Notes under the pieces: model-generated
The model's database searches: none
Told to the model about the DNA's origin: nothing
Seen by the model: the letters and a program-made list of their open reading frames with translations, nothing else
Assembly: GCA_030141605.1 (NCBI GenBank)
Contig: JAQGDQ010001372.1
Location: forward strand, 1 to 44,004
Reading direction: 5' to 3'
From: Tubiluchus corallicola
Taxonomy: Eukaryota; Priapulida; Priapulimorpha; Priapulimorphida; Tubiluchidae
DNA: 44,004 nucleotides
Shown: positions 2,699 to 44,004 of the stretch, piece after piece
Layout of the letters: each line of letters starts with the position of its first letter
Numbering within the stretch: position 1 is the stretch's first letter
Position numbers and translations under genes: made by a program

Positions 2699-5600
2699 GT
2701 ACGGTGCTTTGTGTCTTAATGCTACACGTGTTATTACTATTAACCCTTTCCGTCCCAAATTATTTTTTAATAAGAAAATTTTTTTTGACTTGGTACTTTT
2801 GTTCAGTATGTCCATGTCGTTTACACATAATAATTATTTTTTTCTACATGTGCCCGCGTGCTAAATATAGCCTGCATCCCACGGGATACATTGGGATTCA
2901 ATGGAAGCATAAAATGTGCTTCATTTTGCAACTACTGATAATTTTTTAAAGTATTTAAGACATTTAGTATGCATGCTATGCTGATCTGTACAAAGTCATC
3001 TCTAAAGTACTGTACCTTGCGCAGTTTTTTATGCTATGTAGATTTTCTAGTTTGCCATTTTATCACCATTTTTAGTCTATTGTTATTGGCTTAAATCAAA
3101 ATAACTATTAACACATCAAATAACTGTCAGTTTTAAAATTTTATTAATTTTAAACGCAGAAAATATTCTCGTATCCCACGGGATACAACGGGTGTGAAAA
3201 GTTAATCTACTCACCACTCTGAATACTATAGTAAAAATTTAACTTGAAAAAAGTATGAAAACTTTCTTAATTTGCATTCGAACCCGGGTCTTGGTAGTTC
3301 CGAAATTATTTCCATTTTCACTTAATTCAGTTTGTGGTAGTAATGCAATGTCTTGATGAAGCCGTTCTAAAAATCATAGCATAGGATAGTCTGTTTTTCT
3401 TTTATTCAAAAAGATAGTTGGGCCGTCCCAAAACCGGACAATGTGTAGACATTAGTTCAAAATAAAGTATGCTCTAAAATATTGAAAACTACGACAGCTT
3501 TTTTTTTAAAATAATAATAATTACCTCAGACAGTTCAAAGTAGACTTTCAAAGCTACACGCGGCTCAGCGAATCCACCAAGACTGGCAATGCCACACCAT
3601 CACATTTGCATGGCCGACAAATAGGGGCGGTACCATGATAGGGATGATCAGTGTGACGTGGAGTTCATTTTCGTGACATCTCGCAAGAGTTACTGAAATC
3701 TTATGCAAAAGTGCTTAACGCGCTGGGGACGATGCCTGTCATTGCACAAACTATGGTTAGTTTGTGATGTTAGTGATAGCTGTGTTTGGTTGCCATTAAT
3801 TAACTTTCCAAGATAATTATTCAGATATTAGAAACACTGCCAATGTATTAAAATAAATTAAAATTGGACAGTTAATTAAAATGAGATTGAGTCTAAACAA
3901 TCGTCCGGTTTTCTTTTAATATCTGAAAAGGTAAACAATACTATGTCATGACATATACCACGTCCCATATGTGAGGCGGCAATATTGCCTGTTCTTTCAG
4001 GAATCCATAATTAAGTTGCTGAACTGATGCGAGAGATGACTTTGCTAAAAGGTTAACAATACTACGCCATGATATATACCATGTCTCATATGTAACACAG
4101 CAATATTGCCTGTTCTTTCAGTAATGCATAATTGCTGAACTGATGCGACAGATGACTTTGCTTTATCCACACGTCATGTGACGGTTGTAGTTAAGGTGCA
4201 TTGCTGTAATACACTCAACCTTTGACCTAGAGCAAGTCGAGTCAATTCAGATTCAATTTATTGTTTTGCAGGAATAACAGTTGTGCCAAAGATTTATCAG
4301 CTTTACCTAGAGCAAGTCGAGTCAATTCAGATTCAGTTTATTGTTTTGCAGGAATAACAGTTGTGCCAAAAATTTATCAGCTTTACCTAGAGCAAGTCGA
4401 GTCAATTCAGATTCAGTTTATTGTTTTGCAGGAATAACAGTTGTGCCAAAGATTTATCAGCTTTACCTAGAGCAAGTCGAGTCAATTCAGATTCAGTTTA
4501 TTGTTTTGCAGGAATAACAGTTGTGCCAAAGATTTATCAGCTTTACCTAGAGCAAGTCGAGTCAATTCAGACTCAGTTTATTGTTTTGCAGGAATAACAG
4601 TTGTGCCAAAGATTTATCAGCTTTACCTAGAGCAAGTCGACTCAATTCAGACTCAATTTATTGTTTTGCAGGAATAACAGTTGTGCCAAAGATTTATCAG
4701 CTTTACCTAGAGCAAGTCGACTCAATTCAGACTCATTTTATTGTTTTGCAGGAATAACAGTTGTGCCAAAGATTTATCAGCTTTACCTAGAGCAAGTCGA
4801 CTCAATTCAGACTCAATTTATTGTTTTGCAGGAATAACAGTTGTGCCAAAGATTTATCAGCTTTACCTAGAGCAAGTCGACTCAATTCAGACTCAATTTA
4901 TTGTTTTGCAGGAATAACAGTTGTGCCAAAGATTTATCAGCTTTACCTAGAGCAAGTCGACTCAATTCAGATTCAGTTTATTGTTTTGCAGGAATAACAG
5001 TTGTGCCAAAGATTTATCAGCTTTACCTAGAGCAAGTCGAGTCAATTCAGATTCAGTTTATTATTTTGCAGGAATAACAGTTGTGCCAAAGCATTGTCAC
5101 AACGGTGTGTTTGCCTACCTAGAGCAAGTCGAGTCAATTCAGATTCAGTTTATTGTTTTGCAGGAATAACAGTTGTGCCAAAGATTTATCAGCTTTCACA
5201 GACATTGCAGTGGAGATGCTGATTCAAGCTACGCAGCACGGCAGCAGTTGCAAGTCTGGTGAGTTGCACGTTTCAGCCACTAGATGGAAGCACTAGCCAA
5301 AACATGCGAAAGCACAAGAAAACCTTCTATTTATAGAATGCTTAAAAAATTTGTCTTGAAATTTTATACGACGTACGAAATGCCTTTTGCATGTTAGGGT
5401 TGCTTAAAACTTGTAAATTTAAACTCCCGCGATGACCGTTGGACGCAGCCATTTAAACTCCGGCGATGACCATTAGAGGCAGCCATTTTGACGATAAGTA
5501 ATTTGAAACAAGTTTAGATAACATCGTGTAAAGTTTGAAAAAATAATCAGAGTTCATAGCATATACGTTGATAACTAAGTAAAATTTTAAATTACTGTAT

Positions 5601-6586
5601 CTTGTCAATAAATTTAAAAATATGTTTTTTTGGCTACTGAGTGGCGCCGCCTGGAGGGTGGTGAATCAACGACATTTCACCCATTGGTAAAAAGATTTTA
5701 AATAATTAACAATTTTTTTGTATAAGTCATTCAAGTAGGCAAGTGAAATGCTTGGAAATAATTTTGCATGGAAAGTTCCTTGGGATAAACTTTGAAATTG
5801 ACTTTTCTTCCCTTTTAATCACAGACAGTTTATGTTAAACTTGTTTATCTTGCTTTGCTAGCTATTTGATATTCATTATTAAAATGTAAAAACTTGTAAT
5901 TTAATGGACAATTTTTGACTTAAATTTGTGCACATGTACTGCCAACTTTGCTGTCGTAATGTCTGGGGAATTTTAGTGTAATGAAAACACGTTTTGAAAA
6001 TGAAACTCCTGTTCACTTGTTGAATTGTGCTGCAGTTTCTAATGAAAACACGTTTTGAAAATGAAACTCCTGTTCACTTGTTGAATTGTGCTGCAGTTTC
6101 TAATGAAAACACGTTTTGAAAATGAAACTCCTGTTCACTTGTTGAATTGTGCTGCAGTTTCTAATGAAAACACGTTTTGAAAATGAAACTCCTGTTCACT
6201 TGTTGAATTGTGCTGCAGTTTCTAATGAAAACATGTTTTGAAAATGAAACTCGTGTTCACTTGTTGAATTGTGCTGCAGTTTGTAATGAAAACACGTTTC
6301 GAAAATGAAACTCCTGTTCACTTGTTGAATCGTGCTGCAGTTTCTAATGAAAACACGTTTTGAAAATGAAAGTCCTGTTCACTTGTTGAATCGTGCTGCA
6401 GTTTTGAATTTTCTTGTAGGTTTGTCGTCTAGAATCAGTTCCCGCCCGGCGCTGGCACGATCACCGAGCGAATCGAGCATCCTACGACGTCGCCTACTGC
6501 GACAGCGGGCCGCCGTGAGCATCGGTCCGTCGTCGCGACGACTCAGCGTCGATCCGCGTTATCTGATGAGCAGCTCCGAATTTTAG
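2490..6586 (+). CDS. MKNK: MAP kinase-interacting serine/threonine kinase (MNK), C-terminal three exons
   Basis: Partial gene; exons 2490-2698, 5164-5258 and 6420-6586 join to 156 codons plus stop. MNK kinases are activated by ERK/p38 and phosphorylate eIF4E bound to eIF4G. The first exon encodes the end of the kinase C-lobe, with the family block SIQEGTYDFPDRDW and an HPWV helix. The second reads NNSCAKDLSAF, matching the vertebrate MNK segment NSSAKDL. The last contains SSILRRRLLRQRA, equivalent to the MAPK-docking LARRRALAQ motif near the MNK C-terminus. All junctions are GT-AG and phases fit (AG|G, then G|GT). Both introns carry minisatellites touching the downstream acceptor. Vertebrates have two paralogues; the sequence does not tell which, and many invertebrates have one gene. 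Confidence 0.9.
2740..3205. mobile_element. piggyBac-like MITE, copy 1 (TTAA target)
   Basis: TTAA at 2740-2743 and 3202-3205 flank an element of about 458 bp starting CCCTTTC and ending GTGAAAAG. The other copy at 27481-27939 ends GTGAAAGGG, the expected inverted terminus. TTAA target duplication plus short CCCTTTC termini is the piggyBac signature. There is no transposase frame. It lies 41 bp inside the MNK intron after the kinase exon. Confidence 0.8.
3430..3912 (+). mobile_element. Non-autonomous TIR element, family A copy 1
   Basis: Starts AAAACCGGAC and ends GTCCGGTTTT, a 10-bp perfect terminal inverted repeat. An inverted, diverged copy lies at 37024-37555. It has no coding capacity; I cannot assign the superfamily because the target duplication is unclear. 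Confidence 0.65.
3930..4165. repeat. Two-copy ~115-bp tandem duplication
   Basis: The segment beginning near 3932 (GTAAACAATACTATG) recurs near 4053 (GTTAACAATACTACG). Both contain GGCAATATTGCC-like sequence and TTCAGGAAT, and end at GATGACTTTGC. Confidence 0.8.
4225..5196 (+). repeat. 80-bp minisatellite containing an MNK 3' splice site and 33 coding bases
   Basis: Twelve copies, with GGAATAACAG starting at 4271, 4351, 4431 and so on every 80 bp to 5071, then the true copy after a 92-bp variant unit. Each unit has about 47 bp of intron ending TTGTTTTGCAG and then the first 33 bases of the real exon. Only the last copy (acceptor at 5162-5163) continues into the full exon. Confidence 0.95.
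5164..5258 (+). CDS. MKNK: MNK exon: NNSCAKDLSAF segment
   Basis: Acceptor TTGTTTTGCAG|G, donor TCTG|GTGAGT. The first base completes the split Arg codon and the last starts a Gly codon. It encodes 31 full codons, opening NNSCAKDLSAF, which matches the conserved post-kinase segment of MNK. The first 33 bases are copied 11 more times upstream with their acceptor. Confidence 0.9.
5337..5690. repeat. Dispersed repeat family B, copy in MNK intron
   Basis: Contains AACTCCCGCGATGACC, a 'GACGCAGCCATTT' block and 'GAAACAAGTTTAGATAACAT'. The same blocks recur at 14640-14800, 18830-19150 and 28260-28700, with the 5' portion also at 21840-21951 and inverted at 23755-23890. No coding capacity; possibly a SINE or MITE family. 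Confidence 0.7.
5978..6406 (+). repeat. 61-bp minisatellite before the last MNK exon
   Basis: Seven copies; ATGAAAACAC starts at 5981, 6042, 6103, 6164, 6225, 6286 and 6347, a steady 61-bp period. Each unit contains GTGCTGCAG|TTT, an acceptor-like site. The last copy runs into the true acceptor TTTTCTTGTAG at 6418-6419. Confidence 0.95.
6420..6586 (+). CDS. MKNK: MNK last coding exon with MAPK-docking motif
   Basis: Acceptor TTTTCTTGTAG|G; stop TAG at 6584-6586. The frame joins the previous exon as SCKSG-LSSRIS. It encodes a basic tail with SSILRRRLLRQRA, corresponding to the docking motif LARRRALAQ of MNKs, then a Ser/Arg-rich end. GC content is clearly higher than in the flanking intron, as expected for coding sequence. 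Confidence 0.88.
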
Positions 6587-8660: not shown

Positions 8661-9162
8661 TGTTAAATCAGGGGTGTGCAAATTGCGGCCCGCCGAGAGA
8701 ATTTGTGCGGCCCGCAAAGAGATTTGTCGACCTAATGAAAGTGCGGCCCGGGCGATTAATTGAGTGTATCCAGCTGAAGTCCGTGCCACGATCCCAAAGA
8801 TAGTGCGGGTAGTTTTTTCTACTAGATCGGATGCCATTAACCCTTACAAGACGGTTGTAGCTTAATGTCACTGCACTACACAGACTGTGTGATACACATT
8901 GCTAATATGCATTGTAATGAAATTACCACTATCTGTCCTGAAAGTAGAAATATATGGTTTGTAATATAAATTTTAATAACTAATTCTAAAATAGTTTCTT
9001 GAGTGTAAGTAGTAATGATGTACGCAGGTCGGATGCAAAAAAATCGTTATTACGCCTTTCTGTACTTGACTCCTTGATCAAACTGCCTGTGGCCCGCAGG
9101 AATTGCGGGAAAGTTTAATGTGGCCCGGCTAGTCAGATAATTTGCACACCCCTGTGTTAGAT
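8661..9162 (+). mobile_element. hAT-type MITE, family C copy 1, with target duplication
   Basis: Element 8669-9154 (486 bp) starts CAGGGGTGTGCAAATT and ends AATTTGCACACCCCTG, a perfect inverted terminus. Flanks TGTTAAAT (8661-8668) and TGTTAGAT (9155-9162) form an 8-bp duplication with one mismatch. CAGGGG termini and 8-bp duplications are typical of hAT transposons. No transposase. Confidence 0.9.
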
Positions 9163-11040: not shown

Positions 11041-11551
11041 CTAGTTCAGCATTGTGTAAACTGATTTTAGACCGGTACTGTTTCCTAGTTCAGCATTGTG
11101 TAAACTGATTTTAGACCGGTACTGTTTCCTAGTTCAGCATTGTGTAAACCGATTTTAGACCGGTACTGTTTCCTAGTTCAGCATTGCATAAACTCGGTAC
11201 TGTTTCCTAGTTCAGCATTGTGTAAACTGAGTTTAGACCGGTACTGTTTCCTAGTTCAGCATTGTGTAAACTGAGTTTAGACCGGTACTGTTTCCTAGTT
11301 TTCAGCATTGTGTAAACTGATTTTAGACCGGTACTGTTTCCTAGTTCAGCATTGTGTGAACTGATCTTAGACCGGTACTGTTTCCTAGTTCAGCATTGCG
11401 TGAACTGATTTTAGACCGGTACTGTTTCCTAGTTCAGCATTGCATAAACTCGGACTGTTTCCTAGTTCAGCATTGCGTGAACTGATCTTAGACCGGTACT
11501 GTTTCCTAGTTCAGCATTGTGTAAACTGATTTTAGACCAGTACTGTTTCCT
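11041..11551. repeat. 44-bp intergenic minisatellite
   Basis: About a dozen copies of a 44-bp unit (CTAGTTCAGCATTGTGTAAA then CTGATTTTAGACCGGTACTG and TTTC). Some copies lack about 11 bp in the middle (near 11190 and 11446). Confidence 0.95.
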
Positions 11552-14154: not shown

Positions 14155-14160
14155 TTTATT
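14155..14160 (-). promoter_or_regulatory. Candidate ATIC poly(A) signal
   Basis: AATAAA on the minus strand, 264 bases beyond the ATIC stop codon. It is the nearest exact hexamer I see downstream. Confidence 0.4.
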
Positions 14161-14423
14161 CGTCAAAAATCGATTTATAATTTGTCTAAGGTAAGCAAAT
14201 GCATTTCACATATAATTTTGCATGAAAATCCATTGCGTGACGCGTAGAAACGTACAGAAAATATGAGATACAACACAATCGTTGCTTGGTACGAGCAGTT
14301 TTTCCTGAACCCGTGAAAAATACAGCAAACGCTTACGGTCCTGAAGGACTTGAACGTAGAAAAATTCAGACCGACGCCTCCCCGCTTTCGTCCGATTGTG
14401 TACGTACAATTTTCACTTAAACT

Positions 14424-18267: not shown

Positions 18268-18274
18268 CCACACC

Positions 18275-21300: not shown

Positions 21301-24300
21301 TTTCAACCAGTGATTTCTTCTTCTTCTTCTTCTTCTTCTTCTTCAATGAATCACACGTCCAGGGACATGATACTGCTCACCTCCCTATGCCAGGACTCCC
21401 TACACGCTGCAATGCCCCAAGTGCATTTATTTCTAAGGATCAATGCTGAAGTGTTTAAATCTTTCTGTGCAAAATCTAAATATGTTAACATTTGTCCTCC
21501 TGCAGGTTTTTTAGCTGGTTCTCTATGGCGTGTTGAAGAGCTATCTTTACTGGAATATCATCAGGTAGTCTAAGCATGTGCCCAATCCATCTTAAACGTC
21601 GTCTTTTTATTTTTCTTGTCCAAGGTTCTTCTTTTATTTTTTCATACAGATCTTTGTTTGAAATTTTCCTTGGCCATCTAATACCCAAAATGTTTCTGTA
21701 ATTCCTCCTCCAACCAGTGATTTGCAGTGTCACGTGATTATCGCAAGAGCAGAAATCTTCGCGGGGCTAGGGCGACTGTAGAAATAAACTGACTGTAGCT
21801 CAGCTGCTAAACGGTGCGGCACTGCGCTCCATTTATAAACAAAGCTTAAAAATTTCTCTTGAAATTTTGTACCACTTACATGTTATCTTATTGCGTACAG
21901 GGCTTGCATTGACAACAACACTGTATAAAACTGTAAAAAGTGCATAAAGATGCTCACCAGCTTTCGATCGGTCACCACATTTTTAAATAATTCTGCACCG
22001 ATGACGGCATTGTTCCTTGTCTGTTCAAGCTGCAGGCCAAATACGGTCCTAGTTTCCAAATCCGCCGGTTGGTACAGCGGGTCCATCTTCATCACGCAGT
22101 ATTTGCCGCCCTTCTTCTTCCGCAGCATCCCCAGAGCTTCCTCCCCGTATCCGGGAGCGATTATACCATCGGATACCTAACAGTGTTTAATTCTTAATTA
22201 TTTTAATGATTATTTAATTAATTTCCTTATTTTAATTAATTAGTTATTTAATTGTTGGCGCGTTTCGTGATTAACGGACGCGATAATTTGAAAGCGGGAG
22301 AATCTTGGCTGGACTTCAACTATCAGTGGTCAGATGGTTGTGGTCAGTGGTCAGATCTACTCAATGTCTGCAGACTGAAATCTAGCTCACTTACAAGACT
22401 GCTCTAAATTGAGGCACTGCACTGGCAGAGGCGTCCCAGCCATGCTTGAATGTGTATGTGCAAGCTCGGTAAATACCTCGGAAATAGTATAGCGCATGAA
22501 GTCATCCAAAACGAATATTTAACACAGCAGTCACCTATCCATAAACTATCCAGGGTTGGTGCTGCTTTAATGCACTCACTATATACACACATATAGTAAC
22601 CACTTAGCTATTTGTACTGCCCCCTCACATGTAAATACCTGGGAATAGCATAGCACATGAAGTCATCCAAAGCGAGTATTTAACACAGCAGTCACCTATC
22701 CATAAACTATCCAGGGTTGGTGCTGCTTTAATGCACTCACTATATACACACATATAGCAACCACTTAGCTATTTGTACTGCCCCCTCACATGTAAATACC
22801 TGGGAATAGCATAGCACATGAAGTCATCCAAAACGAGTATTTAACACAGCAGTCACCTATCCATAAACTATCCAGGATTGGTGCTGCTTTAATGCACTCA
22901 CTATACACACATATAGTAACCACTTAGCTATTCGTACTGCCCCTCACATGTAAATACCTGGGGATAGTATAGCATATGAAGTCATCCAAAACGAGTATTT
23001 AACACAGCAGTCACCTATCCATAAACTATCCAGGATTGGTGCTGCTTTAATGCACTCACTATACACACACACACTAACCACTTAGCTATTCGTACTGCCC
23101 CCTCATACGTAACTGAACAGAAAGTGACGTACATGCTGCAGTGAGGTGGCATATCGTAACGGGTACAAAAAATTACAAAGAAAAGCAACTCTGGAGAAAA
23201 CATGATAAGACAATGGTGAGAAAAAATTTCACGGGAAAGAATTTTTTGGAAAACTCCGACAGTCATAACGGACAAATGCCAAATACCCACCTCTCTTGAA
23301 ATAATTCTGGCCGTTGCCGTATCACACGGCTCGGACAAAGCCACGAAATCTCCAAATGAAGCCAGTCTATCGGCAGCGCGAGCGCGAGCGTACGCCGAAG
23401 CCAGTGGAGTCAACGTATGCAACAAGTCATCCACCATGCAATGCTTGGCTTCAACTTCACTGAGCGGAATTCCTACGGCTGCACCTAGAAAGAGAAACCC
23501 AGTCGTACAACAACACATCGGGGACGTCACCTACAAAGAGAAACCCAGTCGTACAACAGCACATCGGGGACGTCACCTAGAAAGAGAAACCCAGTCGTAC
23601 AACAGCACATCGGAGACGTCACCTAGAAAGAGAAACCCAGTCGTACAACAGCACATCGGGGACGTTAGCGAAACTAAATTTTCATTTCGGTTTGCAACAA
23701 TTGCACTTTGGGTTAAGTTTGGGTTGGCGAAATTTATTGTTTCTTTATAAGTGTATCTTTATGCACATTTTACAGTTTTATACAGTGTTGTTGTCAATGC
23801 AAGCTCTGTGCGCAATAAGATAACATGTAAGTGATACAAAATTTCAAGAGAAATTTTTAAGCTCTGTTTATAAATGGAGCCCAGAGCCGCGCCGTTTCAA
23901 CTCAACTCCAGTCAGTTTATTTCTACAGTCGCCCTATCCCGGATAAGAAACTCAGTTTTAGGGGCAACAGCCGTTCAGTGATGGGAGTTGAGCTAGCCGA
24001 CGTTTGTATCGGCTGCGAAGATTTCCGCTCTTGCGATAGTCACGTGACAAAATTTATTAAATTTCGTAGTCGAAATTTCCGATAATTTTCCGTAGCATTT
24101 TTCCGAGGTTTTACTAGTATTTATTCCAATTTTTCTTTTTTCTCCTAGAAACACTCTCCTCTCAAAAACTGCTGAAAAATCTTGGCTAAAATAATTCAAA
24201 TGCAGCGAAAATTTCATTCACGTAACAGTTTGTGACGTGGTTTTTACTGGCAATGTGGCATATCTTCAGTGCTGACCACTGTAAACTTTGAGGGCCCCCG

Positions 24301-27300
24301 GACTCAATCGTCCGAAATATCAAAGCACATCTAGATTTGTTTGTATCCAGAAAAGTGCGCAGAGAAAACTATTAATACTACCTTCAGCTTTTAATTATTG
24401 ATAGTAGTATTATCAACTCACATCCGCACCACCCTTTTGGATTAGTATCCAGAAAAATGATGCAGAGAAAACTGTTTATACTACCTTCGGCTTTCAATTA
24501 TTGATAGTAGTATTATCAATTCACATCTGCACCACCCTTTTGGATTAGTATCCAGAAAAGGACGCAGAGAAAACTGTTTATACTACCTTCGGCTTTCAAT
24601 TATTATTACTGAAGTAGTATTGATCATACTACTTTCACTAGTACTGATAATACTACTGATTATACAGTAGTATGATAAATTTACATCTCCGCCGCCCATC
24701 TGAATTACGGCCCAGAAAGAATGCACAGAAAACCATTAGCACCACTAATCCATATTCACCTGTAGGGCTGACGTGCTTGAAAGATGCAGCAGCAGGTAGA
24801 CCAGCCTCAGCACCAAGTTCTTTAACCAGTTGCCAAGCGTTTAGAGCATCACATAAGTTAATGAAGCCAGGTGATCCGTTTAACACTAAAAACACAAAGT
24901 TTCTCTTGCCAAATCATGCAATAATCTTAAGTTAATGAAGCCAGGTGATCCGTTTAGCACTAAAAACACAAAGTTTCTCTTGCCAAATCATGCAATAATC
25001 TTTCCCATCAATCGAGTGTTAAATACTGAATGACATGCTCTTTAAATCAGGGGTGTGCAAATTGTGGCCCGCCGAGAGAATTTGTGCGGCTCGCGAAGAG
25101 ATTTGTCAACCTAATGAAAGTGCGGCCCGGACGATTAATTGAGTGTATCCAGCTGAAGTCCGTGCCACGAACCCAAAGATAGTGCGGGTAGTTTTTTCTA
25201 CTAGATCGGATGCCATTAACACTTACAAGACGGTTGTAGCTTAATAACACTGTACTACACAGATTGTGTGATACACATTACTAATATGCATTGTAATGAA
25301 ATTACTACTATCTGTCCTGAAAGTAGAAATATATGGTTTGTAATATAAATTTTAATAACTTCTAAAATAGTTTCTTGAGTGTAGTAGTAATCATGTACGC
25401 AGGTCGGACGCAAAAAAATCGTTATTAGGCCTTTCTGTACTTGGCTCCTTGATCAAACTGCCTGTGGCCCGCAGGAATTGCGGGAAAGTTTAATGTGGCC
25501 CGGCTAGTCAGATAATTTGCACACCCCTGGTTTAAACCTTCTCAGTTTGAGGACAAACAAGTGCACAAAAAATAGCTGTTAAATGATTGAACAGCTTGAA
25601 AATAAATCTATTGAAATAAATGTTAACATTTCGACCTGGTGAAGAATTTTGATGTCAATTATTGACAGTAGTATGATCAATTTACATCTGCACCACCCTT
25701 TTGGATTAGTATCAAAAAAAAATTTCAAACCGTCGGAAGTAAATCATTTAGTCAGTAAGTACACGCTACATCTGTTAAAGGCGAAATGCAAATTCACGGT
25801 AAATACCCAACACCTTTTACGAAAAAAACCCGCGAAGAAACTAGGACAACGTTAAGAGATCCACGATTTAGCATTTATGCAAAAAATGTATCATAAATTA
25901 TCATCGATTTTTTTCTGATTCTCGTCAAATTCTAACCCTAGAAATCAAAATTCGTTAAAAAAATGCATCACCACACGAATCTGTTTCAAAACAACCCGTG
26001 ATTCTAATGGCCGGGAGATCGGTGGCAATATCAAACGCTAAAATAAGTTTCTCCGCTTAACAGGAAGCCATTTTTTACAGGAAGCCAATTTTTTACAGGA
26101 AGCCATTTTTTACAGGAAGCCAATTTTTTACAGGAAGCCAATTTTTTACAGGAAGCCAATTTTTATGGGAAGCCAAGTTTGTACAGGAAGACAATTTTTT
26201 ACAGGAAGACAATTTTCAAAATCAGTACCCATTCACTTTTACACAAGACGATTATGGATACCTTCAATAGGCAGCCGTTGAGACATCGCGTAGACTTGTG
26301 CTGGCCTCTGGTGGGGGTTCATCCCGTAGCGCAGCGGCAGCTGTAGGTCGCCGTGACCGTACTGTCGACGGAAGTGATCGGCGATCGCAGCATCGTACCG
26401 GCAGGTATAAGAAAATGCCTAAACAGGTAAAAAATGTAGCTGTTTAATGTGACGCAAATTTAGTTATATTACAGTGACCTGAACGAACAATGAGGGAAAT
26501 CTTTTTTAGAGAAAATCATAGTGACTGCTTTGTAAACAGCGGCAACAACATTCTACAGCGGCAACAACAACAGCAACAACATTCTATAGCGGCAACAACA
26601 ACAGCAAAAACATTCTACAGCAGCAACAGCTACACCACCACCAACAACAACAGCAAAAACAACATGCTACAGCAACAGTGAGAGTAACAACAACAGCAAC
26701 AACATTCTATAGCGGCAACAACAACAGCAAAAACATTCTACAGCAGCAACAGCTACACCACCACCAACAACAGAACAACATGATACAGCAGCAGCAGCAA
26801 TAACAACAGCAAAAACATTCTACAGCAGCAACAGCTACAACACCACCAACAACAACAGCAAAAACAACTTGCTACAGCAACAGTGAGAGTAACAACAACA
26901 GCAACAACTTGCTACAGCAGCAACAGCTACACAACCATCACCACCACCAACAACAGCAACAACAACATGCTACAGCAGCAGCAGCAGCAGCAATAACAAC
27001 AGCAACAACATTCTACTGCAGCAACAGCTACAACACCACCACCAACAACAGCAACAACATTCTACAGCAGCAACAGCTACAACACCACCAACAACAGCAA
27101 AAACAACATGCTACAGCAACAGTGAGAGTAACAACAACAGCAACAACATGCTACAGCAACAGTGAGAGTAACAACAACAGCAACAACATCCTACAGCAGC
27201 AACAACATACTACAGCTACGCAGAGAATTAGCGCAGCAAAACAGTTTTCTACTCCTGTCCCCTTTTCTCTACGAAACTACCTACGAGAAAGAGGTCACTC

Positions 27301-30300: not shown

Positions 30301-33300
30301 GACGGAAATCGGTCAGTTTCCTTTACCACGGATGACGTCCGTCTTATCCGATATCCGGGCTAACGGGGTCCGGTTTAACGAGGGTAGACTGTAATGAAGT
30401 ACAAGAGCAAAACTTGCAATTGCATTATTTACAGTTGCAATTGCATTATTTACAGTTGCAAGATTTTACTAAAAAAACGTTATGACTGTGACTAGTTATT
30501 ACTTTCTATAATCAGCTGGATCGCAGACCACCGTTACACGTCCGTAATTCTTTGCTCCAGCACGCAAAAGGGTCACTCCGCCGATGTCGATCCGTTCCAC
30601 GGCGTCCTCGCGGATCGCGTGCGAATTCGACGCCGCTTCCGCGAACGGGTAGAGGTTGCATACGACGACGCGAACAAGTCGATAACCGTGTGCGACCACG
30701 GCGCCAGTATCTTCCTGTGTTGATCGAGCCAGAATTCCTGTAAATGAAAGAATTCCTGTAAATGAAAGAAGCCGTGATTTACTACACAGCAGTACAGTAG
30801 CGTTGCATACGACGATGCGAACAAGTTGATAACCGTGTGCGACCACGTCGACAATATCTTCCCGTGTTGATCGAGCCAGAATTCCTGTAAATGAAAGAAG
30901 CTGTGATTTACTACACAGCAGTGCAGTAGCATTGCTAATAGCACATAGGACAGGGTTGGTTTTTCATGCTCATTCTGTTACTTTATACAATTAAAAAAAA
31001 CATTTATATTTAAAACACCAGATTTATCAAAACCTTAAATTTACATAGTTAAAAATCGTGTCAACACACTGAATATCTTACAGTAGCACTGTACCTCAAT
31101 TTTCATTTTTGCAAACATGTGCAACATGCTAGTGGAATATTTTTGCTATTGAAAATTAAGTTAGTTTGTGATGTCATCAATAGATGGGCTCGGCTGCCGT
31201 TAAACAAGTTTTTAATGTATTATTACCAGAAATGCTTTTGAGGTATTAATTGTGTTAAAATGTGTACTTTTTATGTGACTTGAAAATGGGGTAGTATATG
31301 AAAAATCATCAGTGGCTACTGCTGTCATCAACAGTGGTAAATTTTTACAAACATACAACCAGTTTATATAGGTAGAGCCTATAGTATAGAACATTATGCA
31401 CTAATTATGTATTTAACAGAAGCCAAATAGGTAATGAATAAGCAGACCAGTAGAAAAGAAATTGATACAATAAATTATGCACTAATTATGTATTTACAAA
31501 AAGCCAAATACCCATTCCATTTTGCTGTCGTGGCTGTGACAAGTTATATATTAGCCATACCGGGAGACAAGATGCTTATTCAGTGCTTTTTCAACGACAA
31601 AGCCTACGCAGGTAAACAGCTGGATTCAATAGGGCGAACAAAACGGCCCAGAAAGAGAATCTAAACCAGCCTTGGAGCAGGCCTTGACATCCGTTGCCAA
31701 TCACAGTGCCGTGACAACTTAGCTATGCAGCTCACGTTGCCTTTTGCTTACAAAAACTGTAGATGGTGTACCTGCATGTATAGCCGGGTGAAGTGTCTTA
31801 ACTCGACCACCAAGTAGTTCTGGAACTCCAGTAATTTCGCAAACATCACTGAAAAGAGATGTACATCGTTCTCTCAGTTTAGAAGTGTTCACTTGTGATG
31901 TAGTGCACATGTTTAAGAGCTCATATGTGAACACAGCGGTAAACTTGAAATTTGAATTTTAAACTTAAAATACGCCGGGCAGTTGGGCACCACACTGGCT
32001 GTTAATAAAGTTTTTAACCTAATTAATTAATTAATAATTTACTAATAATAGTAATAATATTAATAATTACTTAATTAACAAAAACGCTTTGGCATCATTT
32101 TTAGTTTAGAATGAAAACAAAACCTTTTAATGATATAAAGGTCTAAAATAATGTCACAAATTTGGACAAAGGAGTTATTGTTGTGTTTTGTTTCTCTCGG
32201 AAGGCTCGTGGGGAAAACCAGAAAACACTTCGTCAAATTAAACTAGTTTATTAAGCAAGAATTCTACAACACAAAAGTATGAAGTAACGCGAAATGATTA
32301 AACTAAACGTGAAAATCTGGAAAACGTTTGAGTGTATCTGAAAATACAACTATACAAGAGAATGTATAAGTCTGCATCAGTGTGAATCTGCGTGTGTGTC
32401 TCAGCGGCCAGCTTCGCCTTATATAGCGTGCTGGGGAACATTCTAGACGAGTCTTTCTAGAACATTCTACAAGGTAAGACGATTATTCTAATGGAACATT
32501 CTACAATGTTCTATTTAATTCTAATAGATGCCAGCGATCTCCACAACAGTTATGAGCCTATAAAGTGCGAAACTGGTATAAATTTCAGGCTTAAAAATAA
32601 ATGACTAGTTGGCAAAAGTAATGAATCAGATGCCACAAAATTTATGAAACTGGACGCTTTATCGAAAATTTAACAATATGGACTGGTACAGCAAACTAGG
32701 ATATGTACGAAATTTCCCTACTCATTGTGCCATTCAAACCTTCTCATGACCTTGAGCTGCGACATACAGTTCCTCGTTGAGCATGCTCAGTAAACTAGCT
32801 GTGAAAAACAGTTACTAAGGAAAAGCACCGCACTTGTACAAAGTCATTGCTGTGGTAATAATGTGCTTCTTTTCTTACATCTCTTGGTTTGCATACGACT
32901 GATATTACAGATATAAAATAGATACAAAAAAAAATAAAATGCACTGGCCGGCTGTGTTCAATTTCGTCAGCTCTGCCACGTGTTTTTGACAGTGTAGCTG
33001 TCGTGAATCAGTTAAATATTCCAGAGCAACGTAGGGAACAGCAGTTTTCATTCTTTTTATTAATGTGAAACTATTTGGTAAGGAGGCAGGCGGAGGAGTT
33101 GGGAACTACTTTTCAGCAGACGGAAAGAAAACCGCTTCTGTGTTAAATTTTTTACAGATTTTGGTGTTATTTTGTATCTTTATACGTTTTAATAAAAGCG
33201 TTGAGTTCTGATTAACCCAGGTGTCTGAAGCATTTATTTTCACCTGCCTGCGTTTATTTTTATTTGCAGGTTGTCGTCTTGTTTGAAACAAGCACTAACC

Positions 33301-34031: not shown

Positions 34032-34056
34032 ATGGATGTTTCTGAAAGAAAGAAGA
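34032..34056 (+). CDS. ORC2: ORC2 exon 1 (MDVSERKK)
   Basis: ATG with G at -3 and G at +4; donor AAGAAGA|GTGAGT, phase 1. The start is inferred from frame and splice fit with exon 2, because the ORC2 N-terminus is poorly conserved. Confidence 0.7.
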
Positions 34057-37000: not shown

Positions 37001-40000
37001 ACCACCAGTCGTACCTTTAAAGGAAAACCGGCGATTGTTTAGACTCAATCTCATTTTAATTTACTGTCCAAAATACACATTTTCTTGCCTATAAAAGTGA
37101 ACAATTGTTTCTTATATTTGAATAATTAGCTTAGAAAGTTAATTAACGGCAACCTGACACAGTTATTGTTTACGTCAGGAACTAACCACAGTTTGTGCAA
37201 TGGCAGGCATCTTCCCTTGCGTGTCAAGCACGTTTGTGTTACTGCTGAAACATGTGGTGTCACGAAACTGGGCTCTACATCATATGACGTCAGAAACTAA
37301 CACTGCAGTTCATGATCATGCTTATCATGGTACCACCTTCTATTTGTTGGCCAAGCGAATGTGACAAAAAGGCGCCGTTGCCAATCTTAGTAGATTCACT
37401 GAGCCGCGCGTAGCTTTGAAAGTTTAACGAGAAATTTGAGTATCCGAGGTAATTATTATTTAATCTGAGCTTTGATTTAAAATAAGCTGTTGTAGTTTTC
37501 AATATTTTAGAGCATTCTTTATTCTGAACTCATGTTTACACAATCATCCGGTTTTGCTTTAAAGGGGAACAAAAGAAAATTTTAAAGTATATCACACAGC
37601 TTTGTATGCAAAAATATATTATTTAACATATTATTATATGTTATTTAACATATTATCATATATTATTTAACATTTTATTATATATTATATATTATTTATA
37701 TACCTTACCTCACCTCCTTACCTTACCTTACCTCACCTCCTTACCTTACCTTACCTCACCTCCTTACCTTACCTTACCTCACCTCCTTACCTTACCTTAC
37801 CTTCATCCTACCTTACCTTACCTCACTTCCTTACCTTACCTTACCTTACCTCACCTCTTTACCTTACCTTACCTTACCTTACCTTACCTTACCTTACCTT
37901 ACCTTACCTTACCTTACCTTACCTTACCTTACCTTACCTTTTAATACGTCGTAACATTGGCCAAACACATTGTTCTAATGCTATTGAACGAATTAATTTA
38001 CATCAGTCAATTCTTAATACAGTCTCTATGATGAAAAAGCTTTTACCTGTCTGAGCTTCACGTCTCTGGAATAACTTACCTGTCTGAGCTCCACGTCTCT
38101 GGAATCACTTACCTGTCTGAGCTCCACGTCTCTGGAATCACTTACCTGTTGCTAAACGTTCTACAAATTCATTAGATTGTTTTAAACAACATCCTAAAAC
38201 ACGTTTGTTTAAATTTTACTTTTTATGATGAATTATTTTTAATGTCTTTTAAATTTTACATTTTTTTCATATTAAAAGATCAGTAAGGTAAGCAGGTGCC
38301 AAACCATGTTTTAGTTTAAGAGTTTGTATGTCTGAAACAACAACCGAGCAATTTTATAAATTTTATAAATGATTGTTTAGCGTGCTGAGATTTCAAATGA
38401 TGTAATGCGATATGTAAAGCAGGGATGAGAATTTTCCGCGGATACGCGGAATTCTGAGTTTCTGGAAGACCAGTAGTGCCATTTTTGTAAATCGCGTAAA
38501 TTCGTTGAGAAAATTTTTACGGACCCAGTACATTATTTCACAAGCTGACCGCTAGTTGGCAGGCCGTCACTTTGTTTACATCACGTACATCAGTTTAACC
38601 ACGTGTAGATCTCTATGTATAAAAATATAGAATCAATTGTGTGGAGTTATTTGAGTCAATTGCAGACAGTTTTTATAAACTTTTGCATAGGAGCGGCCAG
38701 TACTTAGGCGTTATTGAGACAATTAGGTATCATGTATCCTTGATAGTTGGGTGTTTTAAATTATACATGAAACAATGTAATTGATAATTTAAGTCCACTT
38801 AAGATGTTCTCTATGGTCACAAAATTGCAATTTGTTGCTGGCTTCAAGAGGGCTCCGCCCCCCCGTGAACCCCTACACGCAGCCCCCAAAACCCCGGCCT
38901 GTTTCAGAGTTTTTTGCAATTTGTCATTCTCATCCCTGATATAAATAAATCTTACATTACATTTAATTAATTTACATGTTTAATTAATTCCAGGCCTGGG
39001 TGACCTTAACCTGACCGATGTCCAAGATTCATCCAGTGATGACACTGACAGTGATGATGGCAGCGATAAGGATGAGAGCGCCGCAGCTGCCGAAGAACTG
39101 ACCTCGGTCGCTCGGTCAGCTTGTACTCGATCTACCCACCGGGCAGAGCCATCTACTGGACAAATTTCAACTAGGAGGTATCTCAGGAGTAGATTGGAGA
39201 TTGATCAAGTAAATTAAAATCATTTTGTTTAAAGGTCAAATTTAATGTAAAAATGAGTTTAAAAATAAGACAACTTTATTAAAAACTTTTACATTAAAAA
39301 GTTACAAATTAAAATCAAACGTTTCGACAAGCTGCTGTTGTCATCATCAGTGGTAAATTTACAAACATACAACCAGTTTATATAGGCAGAAACTATTAAT
39401 AAGTTATAAGTTTATTTATTTCCACTCTGCATCTAACAGTTATAATAAAAATACAGATAATTTCACTGAAGTAAATATAAATATAAATGCAATATTATCC
39501 GGAAATTACAAAAGAGATTCTTATGCAGCATATACATGTGCAAATTACATTACAGAATAATTTTGATGCATACAGTTTGAGCCTAAAAGCATAGCTTACC
39601 AGGCCAAACTGTACGTGGAAATCTTAAAGAAGTGATTAATAATTGAAATAATGAAATAATGATAAAATATACATAAAATTGGGGGGGGGGTAGTGAATGA
39701 AAGATGAAATGGAGCGAGAACTAAGAAAAACTGTGATCATGATTATAAAGTGTTCAGTAACCTGTTGAGCATCGTCACGTTTTATTAAGATTACTGTGGA
39801 AAAAAATTATGGACTAATTACATAATTAACAGAAGCCAAATACGTAATGAATAAACAGACAAGTAAAGAAATTGATGCACTAATTATGTATATACAAAAC
39901 GTAATGATTAAGCAAGCAGACTTATAGAAAAGAAATTGATGCAGTAACAAATAGTTAAGTATTTGAAAATAAAGTTAATGGAATTGAACTGCTTTGCACA

Positions 40001-43000
40001 TGAACAGAAGGCTTATTAGGGTACATAGATAAACTTTTATTGATAAATCCAAGTTATTTGTAGCTCTGGTCACAATGCTGAAATTAATAAAATCAACTTT
40101 GTGGCCAGAAGCACAAATATGGTCATTAATGGTGGAGTTGTCAGTTTTACACGTTTTTTTAAACTTTAAAAACAAGTTTTCTTAAATTAAAACTTCAAAC
40201 TGTTACCTTAAATGTTCACCTGAAGAATTACAGTGGTAGTTTTGAAACGTTGTGCATTTTGTTACTTTTTCCTTCTTGTTTAATTTTTTTCTTCTTTAGC
40301 AACAAATGGTGGAAGATTACTTCGACGCCCACGCGAGCTCCGCATCCACGACATCCGATCGTACGCTGTCTCGGCTCCGGAATCCCCGGCTCAAGCAGGA
40401 CGAGTTGCTGTCGGTGCTGAAAAGCGCTCCGGTTTCTCATCGGGCGGAATGTGCTGCCCTCTATGAGGAGCATAGGTGTTTGTTTGAGAAATGGATGTTT
40501 CAGTTGAGGTGAGGTTTCAATTACAAAACGTAACTTGCAGTATACAATCCAGCTGTTTGTTACTTGTTACTGTAAACAACAAAACAAACGTGTTTACCCA
40601 ATTGTTTACGATTTGTTTTACTGTAAACAACAAAACAAACATGTTTACGCAATTGTTTACGATTTGTTTTACTGTAAACAACAAAACAAACATGTTTACA
40701 CAATTGTTTACGATTTGTTTTACTGTAAACAACAAAACAAACATGTTTACCCAATTGTTTACGATTTGTTTTACTGTAAACAACAAAACAAACGTGTTTA
40801 CCCAATTGTTTACGAGTTTGTTTTACTGTAAACAACAAAACAAACATGTTTACGCAATTGTTTACGATTTGTTTTACTGTAAACAACAAAACAAACATGT
40901 TTACACAATTGTTTACGATTTGTTTTACTGTAAACAACAAAACAAACATGTTTACCCAATTGTTTACGATTTGTTTTACTGTAAACAACAAAACAAACGT
41001 GTTTACCCAATTGTTTACGAGTTTGTTTTACTGTAAACAACAAAACAAACATGTTTACGCAATTGTTTACGATTTGTTTTACTGTAAACAACAAAACAAA
41101 CATGTTTACACAATTGTTTACGATTTGTTTTACTGTAAACAACAAAACAAACATGTTTACCCAATTGTTTACGATTTGTTTTACTGTAAACAACAAAACA
41201 AACGTGTTTACCCAATTGTTTACGAGTTTGTTTTACTGTAAACAACAAAACAAACATGTTTACGCAATTGTTTACGATTTGTTTTACTGTAAACAACAAA
41301 ACAAACATGTTTACACAATTGTTTACGATTTGTTTTACTGTAAACAACAAAACAAACATGTTTACCCAATTGTTTACGATTTGTTTTACTGTAAACAACA
41401 AAACAAACGTGTTTACCCAATTGTTTACGAGTTTGTTTTACTGTAAACAACAAAACAAACATGTTTACGCAATTGTTTACGATTTGTTTTACTGTAAACA
41501 ACAAAACAAACATGTTTACACAATTGTTTACGATTTGTTTTACTGTAAACAACAAAACAAACATGTTTACCCAATTGTTTACGATTTGTTTTACTGTAAA
41601 CAACAAAACAAACATGTTTACCCAATTGTTTACGAGTTTGTTTTACTGTAAACAACAAAACAAACATGTTTACCAATTGTTTACGATTTGTTTTACTGTA
41701 AACAACAAAACAAAATGTTTACCAATTGTTTACAGTTTTACTGTAAACAACAAAACAAACATGTTTACCCAATTGTTTACGAGTTTGTTTTACTGTAAAC
41801 AACAAAACAAACATGTTTACCCAATTGTTTACAAGTTGTTTTACTGTAAACAACAAAACAAACATGTTTACCCAATTGTTTACAAGTTTGTTTTACTGTA
41901 AACAACAAAACAAACATGTTTACCCAATTGTTTACCAGTTTGTTTTACTGTAAACAACAAAACAAACATGTTTACCCAATTGTTTACAAGTTTGTTTTAC
42001 TGTAAACAACAAAACAAACATGTTTACCCAATTGTTTACAAGTTTGTTTTACTGTAAACAACAAAACAAACATGTTTACCCAATTGTTTACAAGTTTGTT
42101 TTACTGTAAACAACAAAACAAAATGTTTACCCAATTGTTTACAGTTTGTTTTACTGTAAACAACAAAACAAACATGTTTACCCAATTGTTTACGAGTTTG
42201 TTTTACTGTAAACAACAAAACAAACATGTTTACCCAATTGTTTACCAGTTTGTTTTACTGTAAACAACAAAACAAACATGTTTACCCAATTGTTTACAAC
42301 TTGTTTTACTGTAAACAACAAAACAAACATGTTTACCCAATTGTTTACGAGTTTGTTTTACTGTAAACAACAAAACAAACATGTTTACCCAATTGTTTAC
42401 AAGTTTGTTTTACTGTAAACAACAAAACAAACATGTTTACCCAATTGTTTACGAGTTTGTTTTACTGTAAACAACAAAACAAACATGTTTACCCAATTGT
42501 TTACCAGTTTGTTTTACTGTAAACAACAAAACAAACATGTTTACCCAATTGTTTACCAGTTTGTTTTACTGTAAACAACAAAACAAACATGTTTACCCAA
42601 TTGTTTACAAGTTTGTTTTACTGTAAACAACAAAACAAACATGTTTACCCAATTGTTTACCAGTTTGTTTTACTGTAAACAACAAAACAAACATGTTTAC
42701 CCAATTGTTTACGAGTTGTTTTACTGTAAACAACAAAACAAACATGTTTACCCAATTGTTTACAAGTTTGTTTTACTGTAAACAACAAAACAAACATGTT
42801 TACCCAATTGTTTACGAGTTTGTTTTACTGTAAACAACAAAACAAACATGTTTACCCAATTGTTTACCAGTTTGTTTTACTGTAAACAACAAAACAAACA
42901 TGTTTACCCAATTGTTTACAAGTTTGTTTTACTGTAAACAACAAAACAAACATGTTTACCCAATTGTTTACCAGTTTGTTTTACTGTAAACAACAAAACA

Positions 43001-44004
43001 AACATGTTTACCCAATTGTTTACAAGTTTGTTTTACTGTAAACAACAAAACAAATATGTTTACCCAATTGTTTACCAGTTTGTTTTACTGTAAACAACAA
43101 AACAAACATGTTTACCCAATTGTTTACGACTTGTTTTACTGTAAACAACAAAACAAACATGTTTACCCAATTTTTTACAAGTTTGTTTTACTGTAAACAA
43201 CAAAACAAACATGTTTACCCAATTGTTTACGAGTTTGTTTTACTGTAAACAACAAAACAAACATGTTTACCCAATTTTTTACGAGTTTGTTTTACTGTAA
43301 ACAACAAAACAAACATGTTTACCCAAATTTTTACGAGTTTGTTTTACTGTAAACAACAAAACAAACCCTTTTACGCATTTGCTTTTCTAGTAAATTTTTC
43401 ATTTTTTGCATTTTATTTTTAAGTGAAGGATACAATATCCTGCTGTACGGACTCGGTTCAAAACGGGTCGTCGTCGACGAATTCCGGAACAAATATTTAC
43501 TAACCTCAGATCACCTGGTGATAAACGGGTATTTTCCCAGTCTAACGGTGAAGCAGGTACGTGTGAAACCTTGTTTCCCAGTCTAACGGTGAAGCAGGTA
43601 CGTGTGAAACCTCATTTCCCGGTCTAACGGTGAAGCGGGTACGTGTGAAACCTCGTTTCCCAGTCTAACGGTGAAGCAGGTACGTGTGAAACCTTGTTTC
43701 CCAGTCTAACGGTGAAGCGGGTACGTGTGAAACCTGGTTTCCCAGTCTAACGGTGAAGCGGGTACGTGTGAAACCTTGTTTCCCAGTCTAACGGTGAAGC
43801 GGGTACGTGTGAAACCTTGTTTCCCAGTCTAACGGTGAAGCGGGTACGTGTGAAACCTTGTTTCCCAGTCTAACGTTGAAGCAGGTACGTGTGAAACCTC
43901 GTTTCCCAGTCTAACGGTGAAGCGGATACGTGCGAAACCTCGTTTCCCAGTCTAACGGTGAAGCGGATACGTGTGAAACCTCGTTTCCCAGTCTAACGGT
44001 GAAG
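34032..44004 (+). CDS. ORC2: ORC2: origin recognition complex subunit 2, first seven coding exons
   Basis: Partial (C-terminal half lies off the right edge). Exons 34032-34056, 34196-34333, 35962-36054, 36832-36984, 38994-39208, 40300-40508 and 43424-43556 give 966 bases, 322 codons, all GT-AG in matching phase. ORC2 is a core subunit of the nuclear complex that marks replication origins and loads MCM helicase. The N-terminal two-thirds is a low-complexity acidic/basic tail, as in other ORC2 proteins. The family signature is in the last two exons: MVEDYFDAHASS (human LVEEYFEAHSSS), SDRTLSRL, and GYNILLYGLGSKR (human GFNIVLYGLGSKR), the start of the AAA-like fold. Intron 6 is almost all minisatellite; the exon 7 donor is tandemly repeated. 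Confidence 0.94.
34196..34333 (+). CDS. ORC2: ORC2 exon 2
   Basis: Acceptor TTATATTTAG|GT, donor GACG|GTAACT. It encodes LRPRVTGAKKN and AKSVSFYKESSDSGS, a Ser-rich acidic segment. AKSVSF resembles the PQKSVSF patch of vertebrate ORC2. Confidence 0.8.
34636..34680. other. 10-bp perfect hairpin in ORC2 intron 2
   Basis: AAAGGGCAGC (34636-34645) and GCTGCCCTTT (34671-34680) flank a 25-base loop that itself contains the palindrome ACCAATTGGT. It is followed by AATAAA-like sequence and a (TTA)n tract at 34748-34772, the arrangement of a retroposon 3' end. Confidence 0.7.
34790..35050. repeat. Dispersed repeat related to 30950-31280 and 31910-32000
   Basis: Shares TACAGTAGCACTGTAC, TTTTCATGTTTG-like and 'AATGGGGTAAGATGTGAAAA' blocks with ATIC intron 3 and intron 2 sequence. 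Confidence 0.5.
35382..35580. repeat. Dispersed repeat (related to 10121-10260) and TATA-type microsatellite
   Basis: 35382-35515 resembles 10121-10260 ('AAAGCTTATAATCCAGAG' against 'GAAGCTTGTAATCCAGAG'). 35528-35575 is (TA)n/TATATA with short interruptions. Confidence 0.6.
35962..36054 (+). CDS. ORC2: ORC2 exon 3
   Basis: Acceptor TTTTCATTCAG|TA, donor GAAAT|GTAAGT. It encodes NLEDEEDIVLMGSDVFQ then TPKRKKAVSSK: acidic, then basic and nuclear-localisation-like. Confidence 0.8.
36130..36781. mobile_element. Non-autonomous TIR element filling ORC2 intron 3
   Basis: AAGGCCGGAACTAG (36132-36145) and CTAGTTCCGCCCCT (36766-36779) are inverted, 12 of 14 matching. The ends are G/C-rich with a G-run at 36160-36170. 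The element takes up most of the 777-bp intron. No transposase. Confidence 0.65.
36832..36984 (+). CDS. ORC2: ORC2 exon 4
   Basis: Acceptor CTCTTCCAG|CG, donor GAAAAC|GTTAGT. It encodes a strongly basic segment, KSTAKKTSLKKAANSKTP and then YKLRRLIRK, likely DNA- or histone-contacting tail sequence. A GTTAGT donor is less usual but fits phase on both sides. Confidence 0.8.
37024..37555 (-). mobile_element. Non-autonomous TIR element, family A copy 2 (inverted)
   Basis: Begins AAAACCGGCGATTG and ends CAATCATCCGGTTTT. It shares many blocks in reverse order with 3430-3912, such as 'AAAGTTAATTAACGGCAACC' and the TTCAATATTTTAGAGCAT block. In ORC2 intron 4. Confidence 0.7.
37680..37941. repeat. (CCTTA)n pentanucleotide array, ORC2 intron 4
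   Basis: About 260 bp of CCTTA with a higher-order CCTCACCT variant in the first half and pure repeats after 37856. It is not the arthropod telomere repeat, which would read CCTAA. Confidence 0.95.
38040..38228 (+). pseudogene. LINE ORF2 C-terminal remnant with tandem duplication
   Basis: The frame ending TGA at 38226-38228 reads RLWNHLPVAKRSTNS then LDCFKQHPKTRLFKFYFL. The RLWNxLP...FK motif closes many metazoan non-LTR reverse transcriptases. A 33-bp piece covering the RLWN codons is repeated in tandem three times (38041-38145). Confidence 0.68.
38412..38946. mobile_element. hAT-type MITE, family D
   Basis: Element 38420-38938 (519 bp) starts CAGGGATGAGAA and ends TTCTCATCCCTG, perfect 12-bp inverted ends. 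Flanks ATGTAAAG and ATATAAAT match at 6 of 8. It ends 55 bp before ORC2 exon 5. Confidence 0.82.
38994..39208 (+). CDS. ORC2: ORC2 exon 5
   Basis: Acceptor TTAATTCCAG|GC. The donor CAA|GTAAAT at 39209 was chosen because it gives phase 0 for exon 6; the nearer AG|GTATCT (39178) would be out of frame. It encodes LGDLNLTDVQDSSSDDTDS and further Asp/Ser repeats, a likely phosphorylated acidic tail. Confidence 0.78.
39240..40250 (-). mobile_element. Penelope-like element remnant (ORC2 intron 5)
   Basis: The minus-strand frame at 40175-39975 reads NSTINDHICASGHKVDFINF and then SIVTRATNNLDLSIK. The H...GH.idF.nF.il.r......ikE.l pattern resembles the GIY-YIG endonuclease tail of Penelope-like retroelements. 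Flanking blocks at 39350-39400 and 39815-39960 also occur at 31320-31520. No intact RT is present. Confidence 0.55.
40300..40508 (+). CDS. ORC2: ORC2 exon 6: conserved core start
   Basis: Acceptor TTCTTCTTTAG|CAA, donor TTGAG|GTGAGG (phase 2). It encodes MVEDYFDAHASS, SDRTLSRLRNPRLKQDELL and LYEEHRCLFEKWMFQL, aligning with human LVEEYFEAHSSS, SDRTLQKLKRAKLDQQTL and LNQQYEKLFHKWMLQL. Confidence 0.96.
40560..43368. repeat. 51-bp minisatellite filling ORC2 intron 6
   Basis: About 54 copies of a 50-52 bp unit (CTGTAAACAACAAAACAAAC, ATGTTTACCCAATTGTTTAC, GAGTTTGTTTTA). The first part shows a 205-bp higher-order period made of four units, with consecutive copies apparently identical. Long frames across the array are repeat by-products. 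It leaves only about 50 bp of ordinary intron at each end. Confidence 0.97.
43424..43556 (+). CDS. ORC2: ORC2 exon 7: YGLGSKR segment
   Basis: Acceptor TTATTTTTAAG|T, donor GAAGCAG|GTACGT, phase 0. It encodes EGYNILLYGLGSKRVVVDEF and HLVINGYFPSLTVKQ, matching human GFNIVLYGLGSKRDLLERF and HVVINGFFPGISVK. The last bases plus donor are repeated downstream. Confidence 0.96.
43534..44004 (+). repeat. 41-bp minisatellite repeating the ORC2 exon 7 end and donor
   Basis: GTCTAACG starts at 43540 (in the exon) and then every 41 bp to 43991: twelve copies, still going at the window edge. Each unit has TTTCCCAG, the coding bases TCTAACGGTGAAGC, and (in most) a GTACGT donor. The copies at about 43924 and 43965 read GGATACGT and have lost the donor GT. 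Confidence 0.95.

What the first reader, a model, noticed from the sequence alone, without database searches (positions are those of the whole stretch)
4225..44004. Minisatellites seeded at splice junctions in three neighbouring genes
Five arrays have units that physically include a splice site and usually adjoining coding bases: MNK (80 bp x12), ATIC exon 8 (46 bp x4), ATIC exon 7 (74 bp x2), ATIC exon 4 (129 bp x2 and 18 bp x2) and ORC2 exon 7 (41 bp x12). The 61-bp MNK array ends within about 15 bp of an acceptor. In every case the array grows into the intron and leaves one intact exon copy. Unit sequences are unrelated, so this looks like a recurrent local process rather than one mobile repeat. 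I recall 'mirage minisatellites' described at the amphioxus Adh locus as the closest precedent. A density of five cases in about 40 kb suggests a genome-wide mechanism, such as replication slippage or repair at R-loops near splice sites, or selection for decoy splice sites.
Basis: partly seen in the sequence, partly recalled or inferred. Interest (0 to 1): 0.92.

Follow-up and report, generated by a model that had tools for sequence, protein, structure and literature searches.

The report
Minisatellites that copy splice sites
In an unnamed animal, five short DNA repeats in three neighbouring genes have copied the edge of an exon several times over; the same oddity is known from amphioxus, and a sample of other genes in this genome gives no sign that it happens preferentially at exon edges.

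Summary
All five arrays exist, their units contain a real splice site, and each gene keeps one intact exon edge: MNK 80 bp x12, ATIC exon 8 46 bp x4, exon 7 74 bp x2, exon 4 129 bp x2 plus 18 bp x2, ORC2 41 bp x11.5, cut by the contig end. A second, colinear contig (C1185, 92.9% identical outside arrays) carries a complete ORC2 array of 14.8 units with a different variant pattern, so that array is not an assembly artefact. The MNK and ATIC arrays were found nowhere else in the assembly.
A genome-wide junction-seeding process is not supported. In 127 other exon loci (238 junctions; myosin, kinesin and TCP-1 genes) no array crosses a junction, and array coverage falls towards junctions. The window is a minisatellite hotspot (25% of bases against 3%). 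Placing its founding units at random predicts 1.2 straddling arrays against 5 seen (P = 0.005, post hoc); window and sample together give 5 against 2.2-2.8.
These fit 'mirage' minisatellites, named in amphioxus Adh3 and globin genes. ATIC is only 63% identical to Branchiostoma floridae, so the host is not Branchiostoma: a new occurrence of a known kind.

The parts
4220..5196 (+). 80-bp minisatellite x12; units hold the acceptor of the penultimate MNK exon; the array covers 33 bases of that exon
   Evidence: TRF; unit alignment; 12 of 12 acceptors score 9.3-10.6
5164..5258 (+). intact MNK exon whose acceptor edge is copied
   Evidence: gene model
2490..2698 (+). upstream MNK exon (kinase C-lobe end)
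6420..6586 (+). last MNK exon
5979..6404 (+). 61-bp minisatellite x7, ending 15 bp before the last MNK acceptor; does not include it
23482..23665 (-). 46-bp minisatellite x4 including the acceptor of ATIC exon 8 and 3 exon bases
23291..23484 (-). ATIC exon 8
24854..25002 (-). 74-bp duplication x2 including the acceptor and 32 bases of ATIC exon 7
24760..24885 (-). ATIC exon 7
30655..30929 (-). 129-bp duplication x2 including the acceptor and about 80 bases of ATIC exon 4
30731..30770 (-). 18-bp x2 nested duplication of the same acceptor; use of the upstream copy would add 6 residues in frame
30503..30737 (-). ATIC exon 4
43533..44004 (+). 41-bp minisatellite x11.5 including 24 bases of an ORC2 exon and its donor; cut by the contig end
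   Evidence: second contig
43424..43556 (+). ORC2 exon whose donor edge is copied
38994..39208 (+). ORC2 exon found through the second contig; no array on its junctions
40567..43366 (+). 52-bp minisatellite x54 filling the preceding ORC2 intron; ends 57-58 bp from both exons, holds no junction

Best explanation
These are ordinary minisatellites in a stretch that is unusually rich in them, in what looks like a highly heterozygous animal. Five founding tandem duplications happened to span an exon-intron boundary. Such a duplication leaves one complete exon edge next to the exon body, so it can be tolerated. Later unequal exchange or slippage adds and removes whole units on the intron side, and selection keeps the copy joined to the exon. 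The copied splice sites stay intact because units are recent and homogenised, and splicing presumably still uses the exon-proximal copy through exon definition. Shown: the anatomy, no other copy of the MNK and ATIC arrays found, a second version of the ORC2 array with other variants, open reading frames, no junction enrichment in the sample. Inferred: neutral founding, the expansion mechanism, and use of the proximal site.
For: Arrays (period 10 or more) cover 10.9 of 44.0 kb (25%) against 5.7 of 170.6 kb (3.3%) in the sampled exon loci counted once (6.25 of 210 kb with overlapping loci counted twice). 0 of 238 sampled junctions are crossed and coverage falls towards junctions. The sampled arrays would predict 1.1-1.7 straddlers under uniform seeding, so zero agrees with no special seeding. 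Window plus sample: 5 seen, 2.2-2.8 expected, P = 0.07-0.15. The MNK and ATIC arrays match only the window. The ORC2 array on C1185 has 14.8 units, a 5-unit higher-order repeat and other variants. A nearby 33-bp array differs in length: at least 16.2 units there, 3.2 here. Frames are open.
Against: Within the window, 5 straddling arrays against 1.2 expected (P = 0.005), and 5 of 42 junctions here against 0 of 238 in the sample (Fisher P = 6e-5); array richness may not explain all of it. The sample covers three conserved gene families and has power only against large enrichment. No RNA data show which splice copy is used.
Confidence: 0.7

Rival explanations
1. Junction-linked seeding: transcription-coupled damage, R-loops or replication stalling at splice sites starts tandem duplications there, so junction arrays are enriched.
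For: 5 straddling arrays against 1.2 expected in the window; four other arrays end within 15-57 bp of a junction; mirages are reported in amphioxus Adh, globin, troponin C and PGBD5 genes (PMC3902484 passages).
Against: 0 of 238 sampled junctions are crossed and array coverage declines towards junctions; the window was chosen after the fact.
Confidence: 0.15
2. Selection for decoy splice sites: the copies are kept because they tune splicing or make unproductive transcripts.
For: Decoys score like the real sites (simple matrix scores): MNK 12 of 12 acceptors 9.3-10.6; ATIC 8 8.0-8.3; ATIC 7 0.9 both; ATIC 4 decoys 10.4 against 7.5; ORC2 9 of 11 donors keep GT here and 15 of 15 on C1185.
Against: Homogenisation alone explains intact copies. 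Decoy use would give a stop in MNK, ATIC 7, ATIC 8 and ORC2. 2 of 11 ORC2 donors here are lost. Amphioxus mirages were reported not to disturb splicing (PMC3087553 passages).
Confidence: 0.07
3. Assembly artefact: collapsed or expanded reads created the arrays.
For: The ORC2 array runs to the contig end and C1185 ends inside another array.
Against: The ORC2 array is found, complete and with different variants, on a second contig with both flanks; units carry their own base differences. No such second copy exists for the MNK and ATIC arrays.
Confidence: 0.03
4. A mobile or dispersed repeat inserted at splice sites.
For: A dispersed sequence (13 matches on other contigs) overlaps the outer 10 bp of the ATIC exon 8 array and runs on beyond it.
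Against: The units contain host exon bases and differ from each other; apart from that outer edge the MNK and ATIC arrays had no other match (whose DNA search skips very common words); the ORC2 unit matched only at ORC2 on two contigs, up to 1 mismatch.
Confidence: 0.02

Closest known systems
'Mirage' minisatellites of amphioxus Adh3 (Canestro et al. 2002, not held here; cited in PMC3087553)
   Same: [quoted passage not shown] units of 10-72 bp; length instability; normal splicing reported (passages of PMC3087553).
   Different: Host here is not Branchiostoma (ATIC 63% identical); up to 14.8 units; splicing and somatic instability not tested here.
Mirages in amphioxus globins BflGb6 and BflGb9 (PMC3087553, passages)
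   Same: [quoted passage not shown] haplotypes differ (6 and 3 units).
   Different: Longer units (150-160 bp), fewer copies; no density test was seen in the passages read.
Tandem repeats at splice sites of lancelet PGBD5, with troponin C mentioned (PMC3902484, passages)
   Same: 60-bp and 108-bp repeats at splice sites; copy number differs between assemblies (2 or 7, 3 or 6).
   Different: One gene, imperfect repeats; here three adjacent genes and mostly near-identical units.
Intron creation by tandem duplication of AG/GT sites (Rogers 1989; Zhuo et al. 2007; Gao and Lynch 2009; known here only from the text and reference list of PMC3087553)
   Same: Tandem duplication that copies splice signals.
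   Different: No new intron is created here; copies sit inside an existing intron. ATIC exon 4 comes closest, with open in-frame upstream copies.
Tandem repeats modifying human gene structure (PMC2812944; title and start of abstract only)
   Same: Internal tandem repeats that touch gene structure.
   Different: Human segmental duplications; not read further, so overlap with this kind is unknown.

Membership tests
mirage minisatellites | tandem repeat unit spans an exon-intron boundary | tested here: met
   five arrays
mirage minisatellites | one authentic exon edge stays intact and the gene reads through | tested here: met
   ATIC and MNK, ORC2
mirage minisatellites | length differs between haplotypes | tested here: inconclusive
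   ORC2: 14.8 units on C1185, but the window's array is cut at 11.5, so only the variant patterns can be said to differ. MNK and ATIC have no second copy. A nearby non-junction array does differ, 3.2 against at least 16.2 units
mirage minisatellites | normal splicing despite duplicated sites | not testable with these tools
   no RNA data
mirage minisatellites | somatic instability (Adh3) | not testable with these tools
   needs tissue sampling
mirage minisatellites | host is an amphioxus (all cases met in the passages read) | tested here: not met
   ATIC 63% to Branchiostoma floridae; excludes Branchiostoma, not every other cephalochordate. Taken as known range, not as definition
   0 of 238 junctions; coverage falls towards junctions; limited to three gene families

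The most novel reading that the evidence does not exclude
In some animal lineages outside Branchiostoma, local hotspots exist where tandem duplication starts preferentially at splice junctions of active genes, repeatedly making up to 15 nearly equally strong copies of a splice site that the spliceosome ignores in favour of the exon-proximal one.
Probability: 0.15. Interest if true: 0.7.

Novelty: new member of a known kind. Interest (0 to 1): 0.4.

Why it matters
Mirages are a natural test of how the spliceosome picks one of many near-identical sites: in ORC2 on C1185 15 donors of nearly equal score lie in a row, and in the window any but the first should give a stop. They are also a suggested source of new introns (PMC3087553). 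Finding them outside Branchiostoma widens the known range, and the junction sample argues against a general, strong junction-targeted mechanism.

Tried and rejected
Whole-genome test: not possible, because this genome gives no file; replaced by the exon sample. Further families planned for the sample did not complete: PF00171 and PF01602, PF00069. Second copy of the MNK and ATIC arrays: none found. Naming the organism: ATIC best identity 64% in the 120 listed of 7997 scored; tree placement unsure, long branch, in no supported group among 26 rows; COX1 search did not complete. Prior reports: nine paper searches; judged by their listings, only PMC3087553 and PMC3902484 concern mirages; of both I saw passages and of the first also outline and abstract. 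The other listed papers were not opened. Loci left out of the junction count: L001-L004 (test pattern), L005-L007 and L009-L015 (no introns), L016 (doubtful), L037 and L058 (mirror copies). Of 254 exon ends in the 127 loci, 16 had no site above the score cut. Nearest miss: in L108 a 14-bp x2.1 array (score 51) ends 4 bases before the called acceptor. The donor called in L137 looks wrong on reading; no array touches either candidate. One search used 39178 as the end of the extra ORC2 exon; one search shows 39208 fits the frame; no array lies at either.

Full report
What is there. The window is a whole 44,004-bp contig (C1091) of an unnamed 343.5-Mb assembly in 2344 contigs. It holds the last three exons of an MNK-type kinase (+), 13 exons of ATIC (-) and six exons of ORC2 (+). 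The joined ATIC reads as 585 residues without a stop, its start missing, 56-64% identical to the 120 homologues listed. I found 40 junctions at first and two more at an ORC2 exon, 38994-39208, that a second contig revealed. With it the six ORC2 exons read through in one frame. That makes 42 junctions.

The five arrays are real. TRF, reading and unit alignments confirm each. Four copy an acceptor (MNK, ATIC 4, 7, 8) and one copies a donor (ORC2). The exon part ranges from 3 bases (ATIC 8) to about 80 (ATIC 4). The intact copy always adjoins the exon body. ATIC exon 4 has a 129-bp duplication, which TRF did not list, and a nested 18-bp one.

Second version of the ORC2 array. A 30-base pattern from the ORC2 unit also hits contig C1185. 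Two fetched pieces show that C1185 is colinear with the right end of the window: 92.9% identity over 920 bp outside arrays and 3 amino-acid changes in 44 residues of the exon (my reading). I take it as the other haplotype; a diverged duplicate is not excluded. Its ORC2 array is complete, 14.8 units, with another variant pattern and a 5-unit higher-order repeat. The window's array is cut at 11.5 units, so the two lengths cannot be compared. A 33-bp array nearby does differ: at least 16.2 units there and 3.2 here. Both contigs end inside arrays. A combined search found no second copy of the MNK or ATIC arrays.

Chance. The expected number of straddling arrays depends on the null. If the founding unit is placed uniformly, and units wholly inside exons or over two junctions are excluded, 1.16 are expected and 5 are seen (P = 0.005, 20,000 draws). 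If whole arrays are placed freely 9.9 junctions are hit; with at most 100 exon bases covered 5.6; with at most 40, 1.4 and P = 0.0075. I regard the first as the fairest, but the window was chosen because of these arrays.

Genome sample. I used exons of TCP-1 (PF00118), myosin head (PF00063) and kinesin (PF00225). 127 loci on 44 contigs gave 238 junctions with a score above the cut, of 254 exon ends. None is crossed by an array of period 10 or more and score 50 or more. Coverage by arrays is 0 in the last 50 exon bases, 0.4% in the first 25 intron bases, 3.1-4.5% from 100 to 224 bases and 2.7% at 225-249. Counted once, the loci hold 170.6 kb with 31 arrays covering 3.3%; searches count overlapping loci twice (210 kb, 35 arrays, 3.0%). 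Uniform seeding predicts 1.1-1.7 straddlers, so zero is unremarkable. Twenty loci were picked with small contigs in mind (contigs 25 to 136 kb except three loci on C70). The window differs from the sample (5 of 42 against 0 of 238, Fisher P = 6e-5), but it also carries about eight times the array coverage. Pooled, 5 are seen and 2.2-2.8 expected (P = 0.07-0.15). Limits: three conserved families, automatic junction calls with at least one likely miscall, and 80 of the loci have only 250 bp of flank.

How it probably works. A junction-spanning tandem duplication leaves one full exon edge, so it can persist; a duplication within an exon usually cannot. Expansion then happens in the intron. Nothing more is needed for the one-sided look. 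The puzzle left is splicing. All 12 MNK acceptors score 9.3-10.6; 9 of 11 ORC2 donors here and 15 of 15 on C1185 keep GT; the ATIC 4 decoys score higher than the real site. Use of any decoy gives a stop in MNK, ATIC 7, ATIC 8 and ORC2 of the window; in ATIC 4 the two decoys are open and in frame, adding 6 or 49 residues (all). Proximity of the intact edge to the rest of the exon (exon definition) is my inference for the choice.

Comparison. The name 'mirage' and the amphioxus cases were confirmed in passages of PMC3087553 and PMC3902484: Adh3, globins, PGBD5, with troponin C mentioned. They report length differences and, for Adh3 and globins, undisturbed splicing. The host here is not Branchiostoma: 63% ATIC identity. 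In a tree with 26 homologues the window's ATIC sits on a long branch in no supported group. Nine literature searches (listed under Tried and rejected) showed no mirage report outside amphioxus in the held library; subscription papers are mostly missing there and the original Adh3 paper is not held.

Verdict. A sound observation of a known kind in a new host. The proposed genome-wide junction mechanism is not supported by the sample but not excluded at the size of a few-fold.

Noticed in passing
C1185:36900-38300 and 42407-43906 (L147, L148): Haplotype-like contig overlapping the right end of the window at about 93% identity; both contigs end inside tandem arrays.
   Followed up: yes
window 30503-30929: Upstream ATIC exon 4 acceptors are in frame and open: +6 or +49 residues; a possible alternative isoform.
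   Followed up: partly
window 40567-43366: An ORC2 intron consists almost wholly of a 52-bp repeat x54, 57-58 bp from both exons.
   Followed up: partly
window 38043-38149 and L148: 33-bp array with CAG|GTAA on the minus strand: 3.2 units here, at least 16.2 on C1185.
   Followed up: partly
window about 23655-23720: A dispersed sequence overlapping the outer 10 bp of the ATIC exon 8 array and running beyond it, with 13 matches (77-86%) on other contigs.
   Followed up: no
C1923, C1917, C1761, C846, C1597, C1531, C2335; C349, C1556, C530, C2263: Intron-free full-length Cpn60/TCP-1 and kinesin matches beside intron-rich ones; C1923, C1917 and C349 also carry multi-exon kinesin matches. Retrocopies, intronless genes or contaminants, not resolved.
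   Followed up: no
C917:20400-23919 and 90660-94210: Two myosin stretches with the same match scores in inverted orientation.
   Followed up: no
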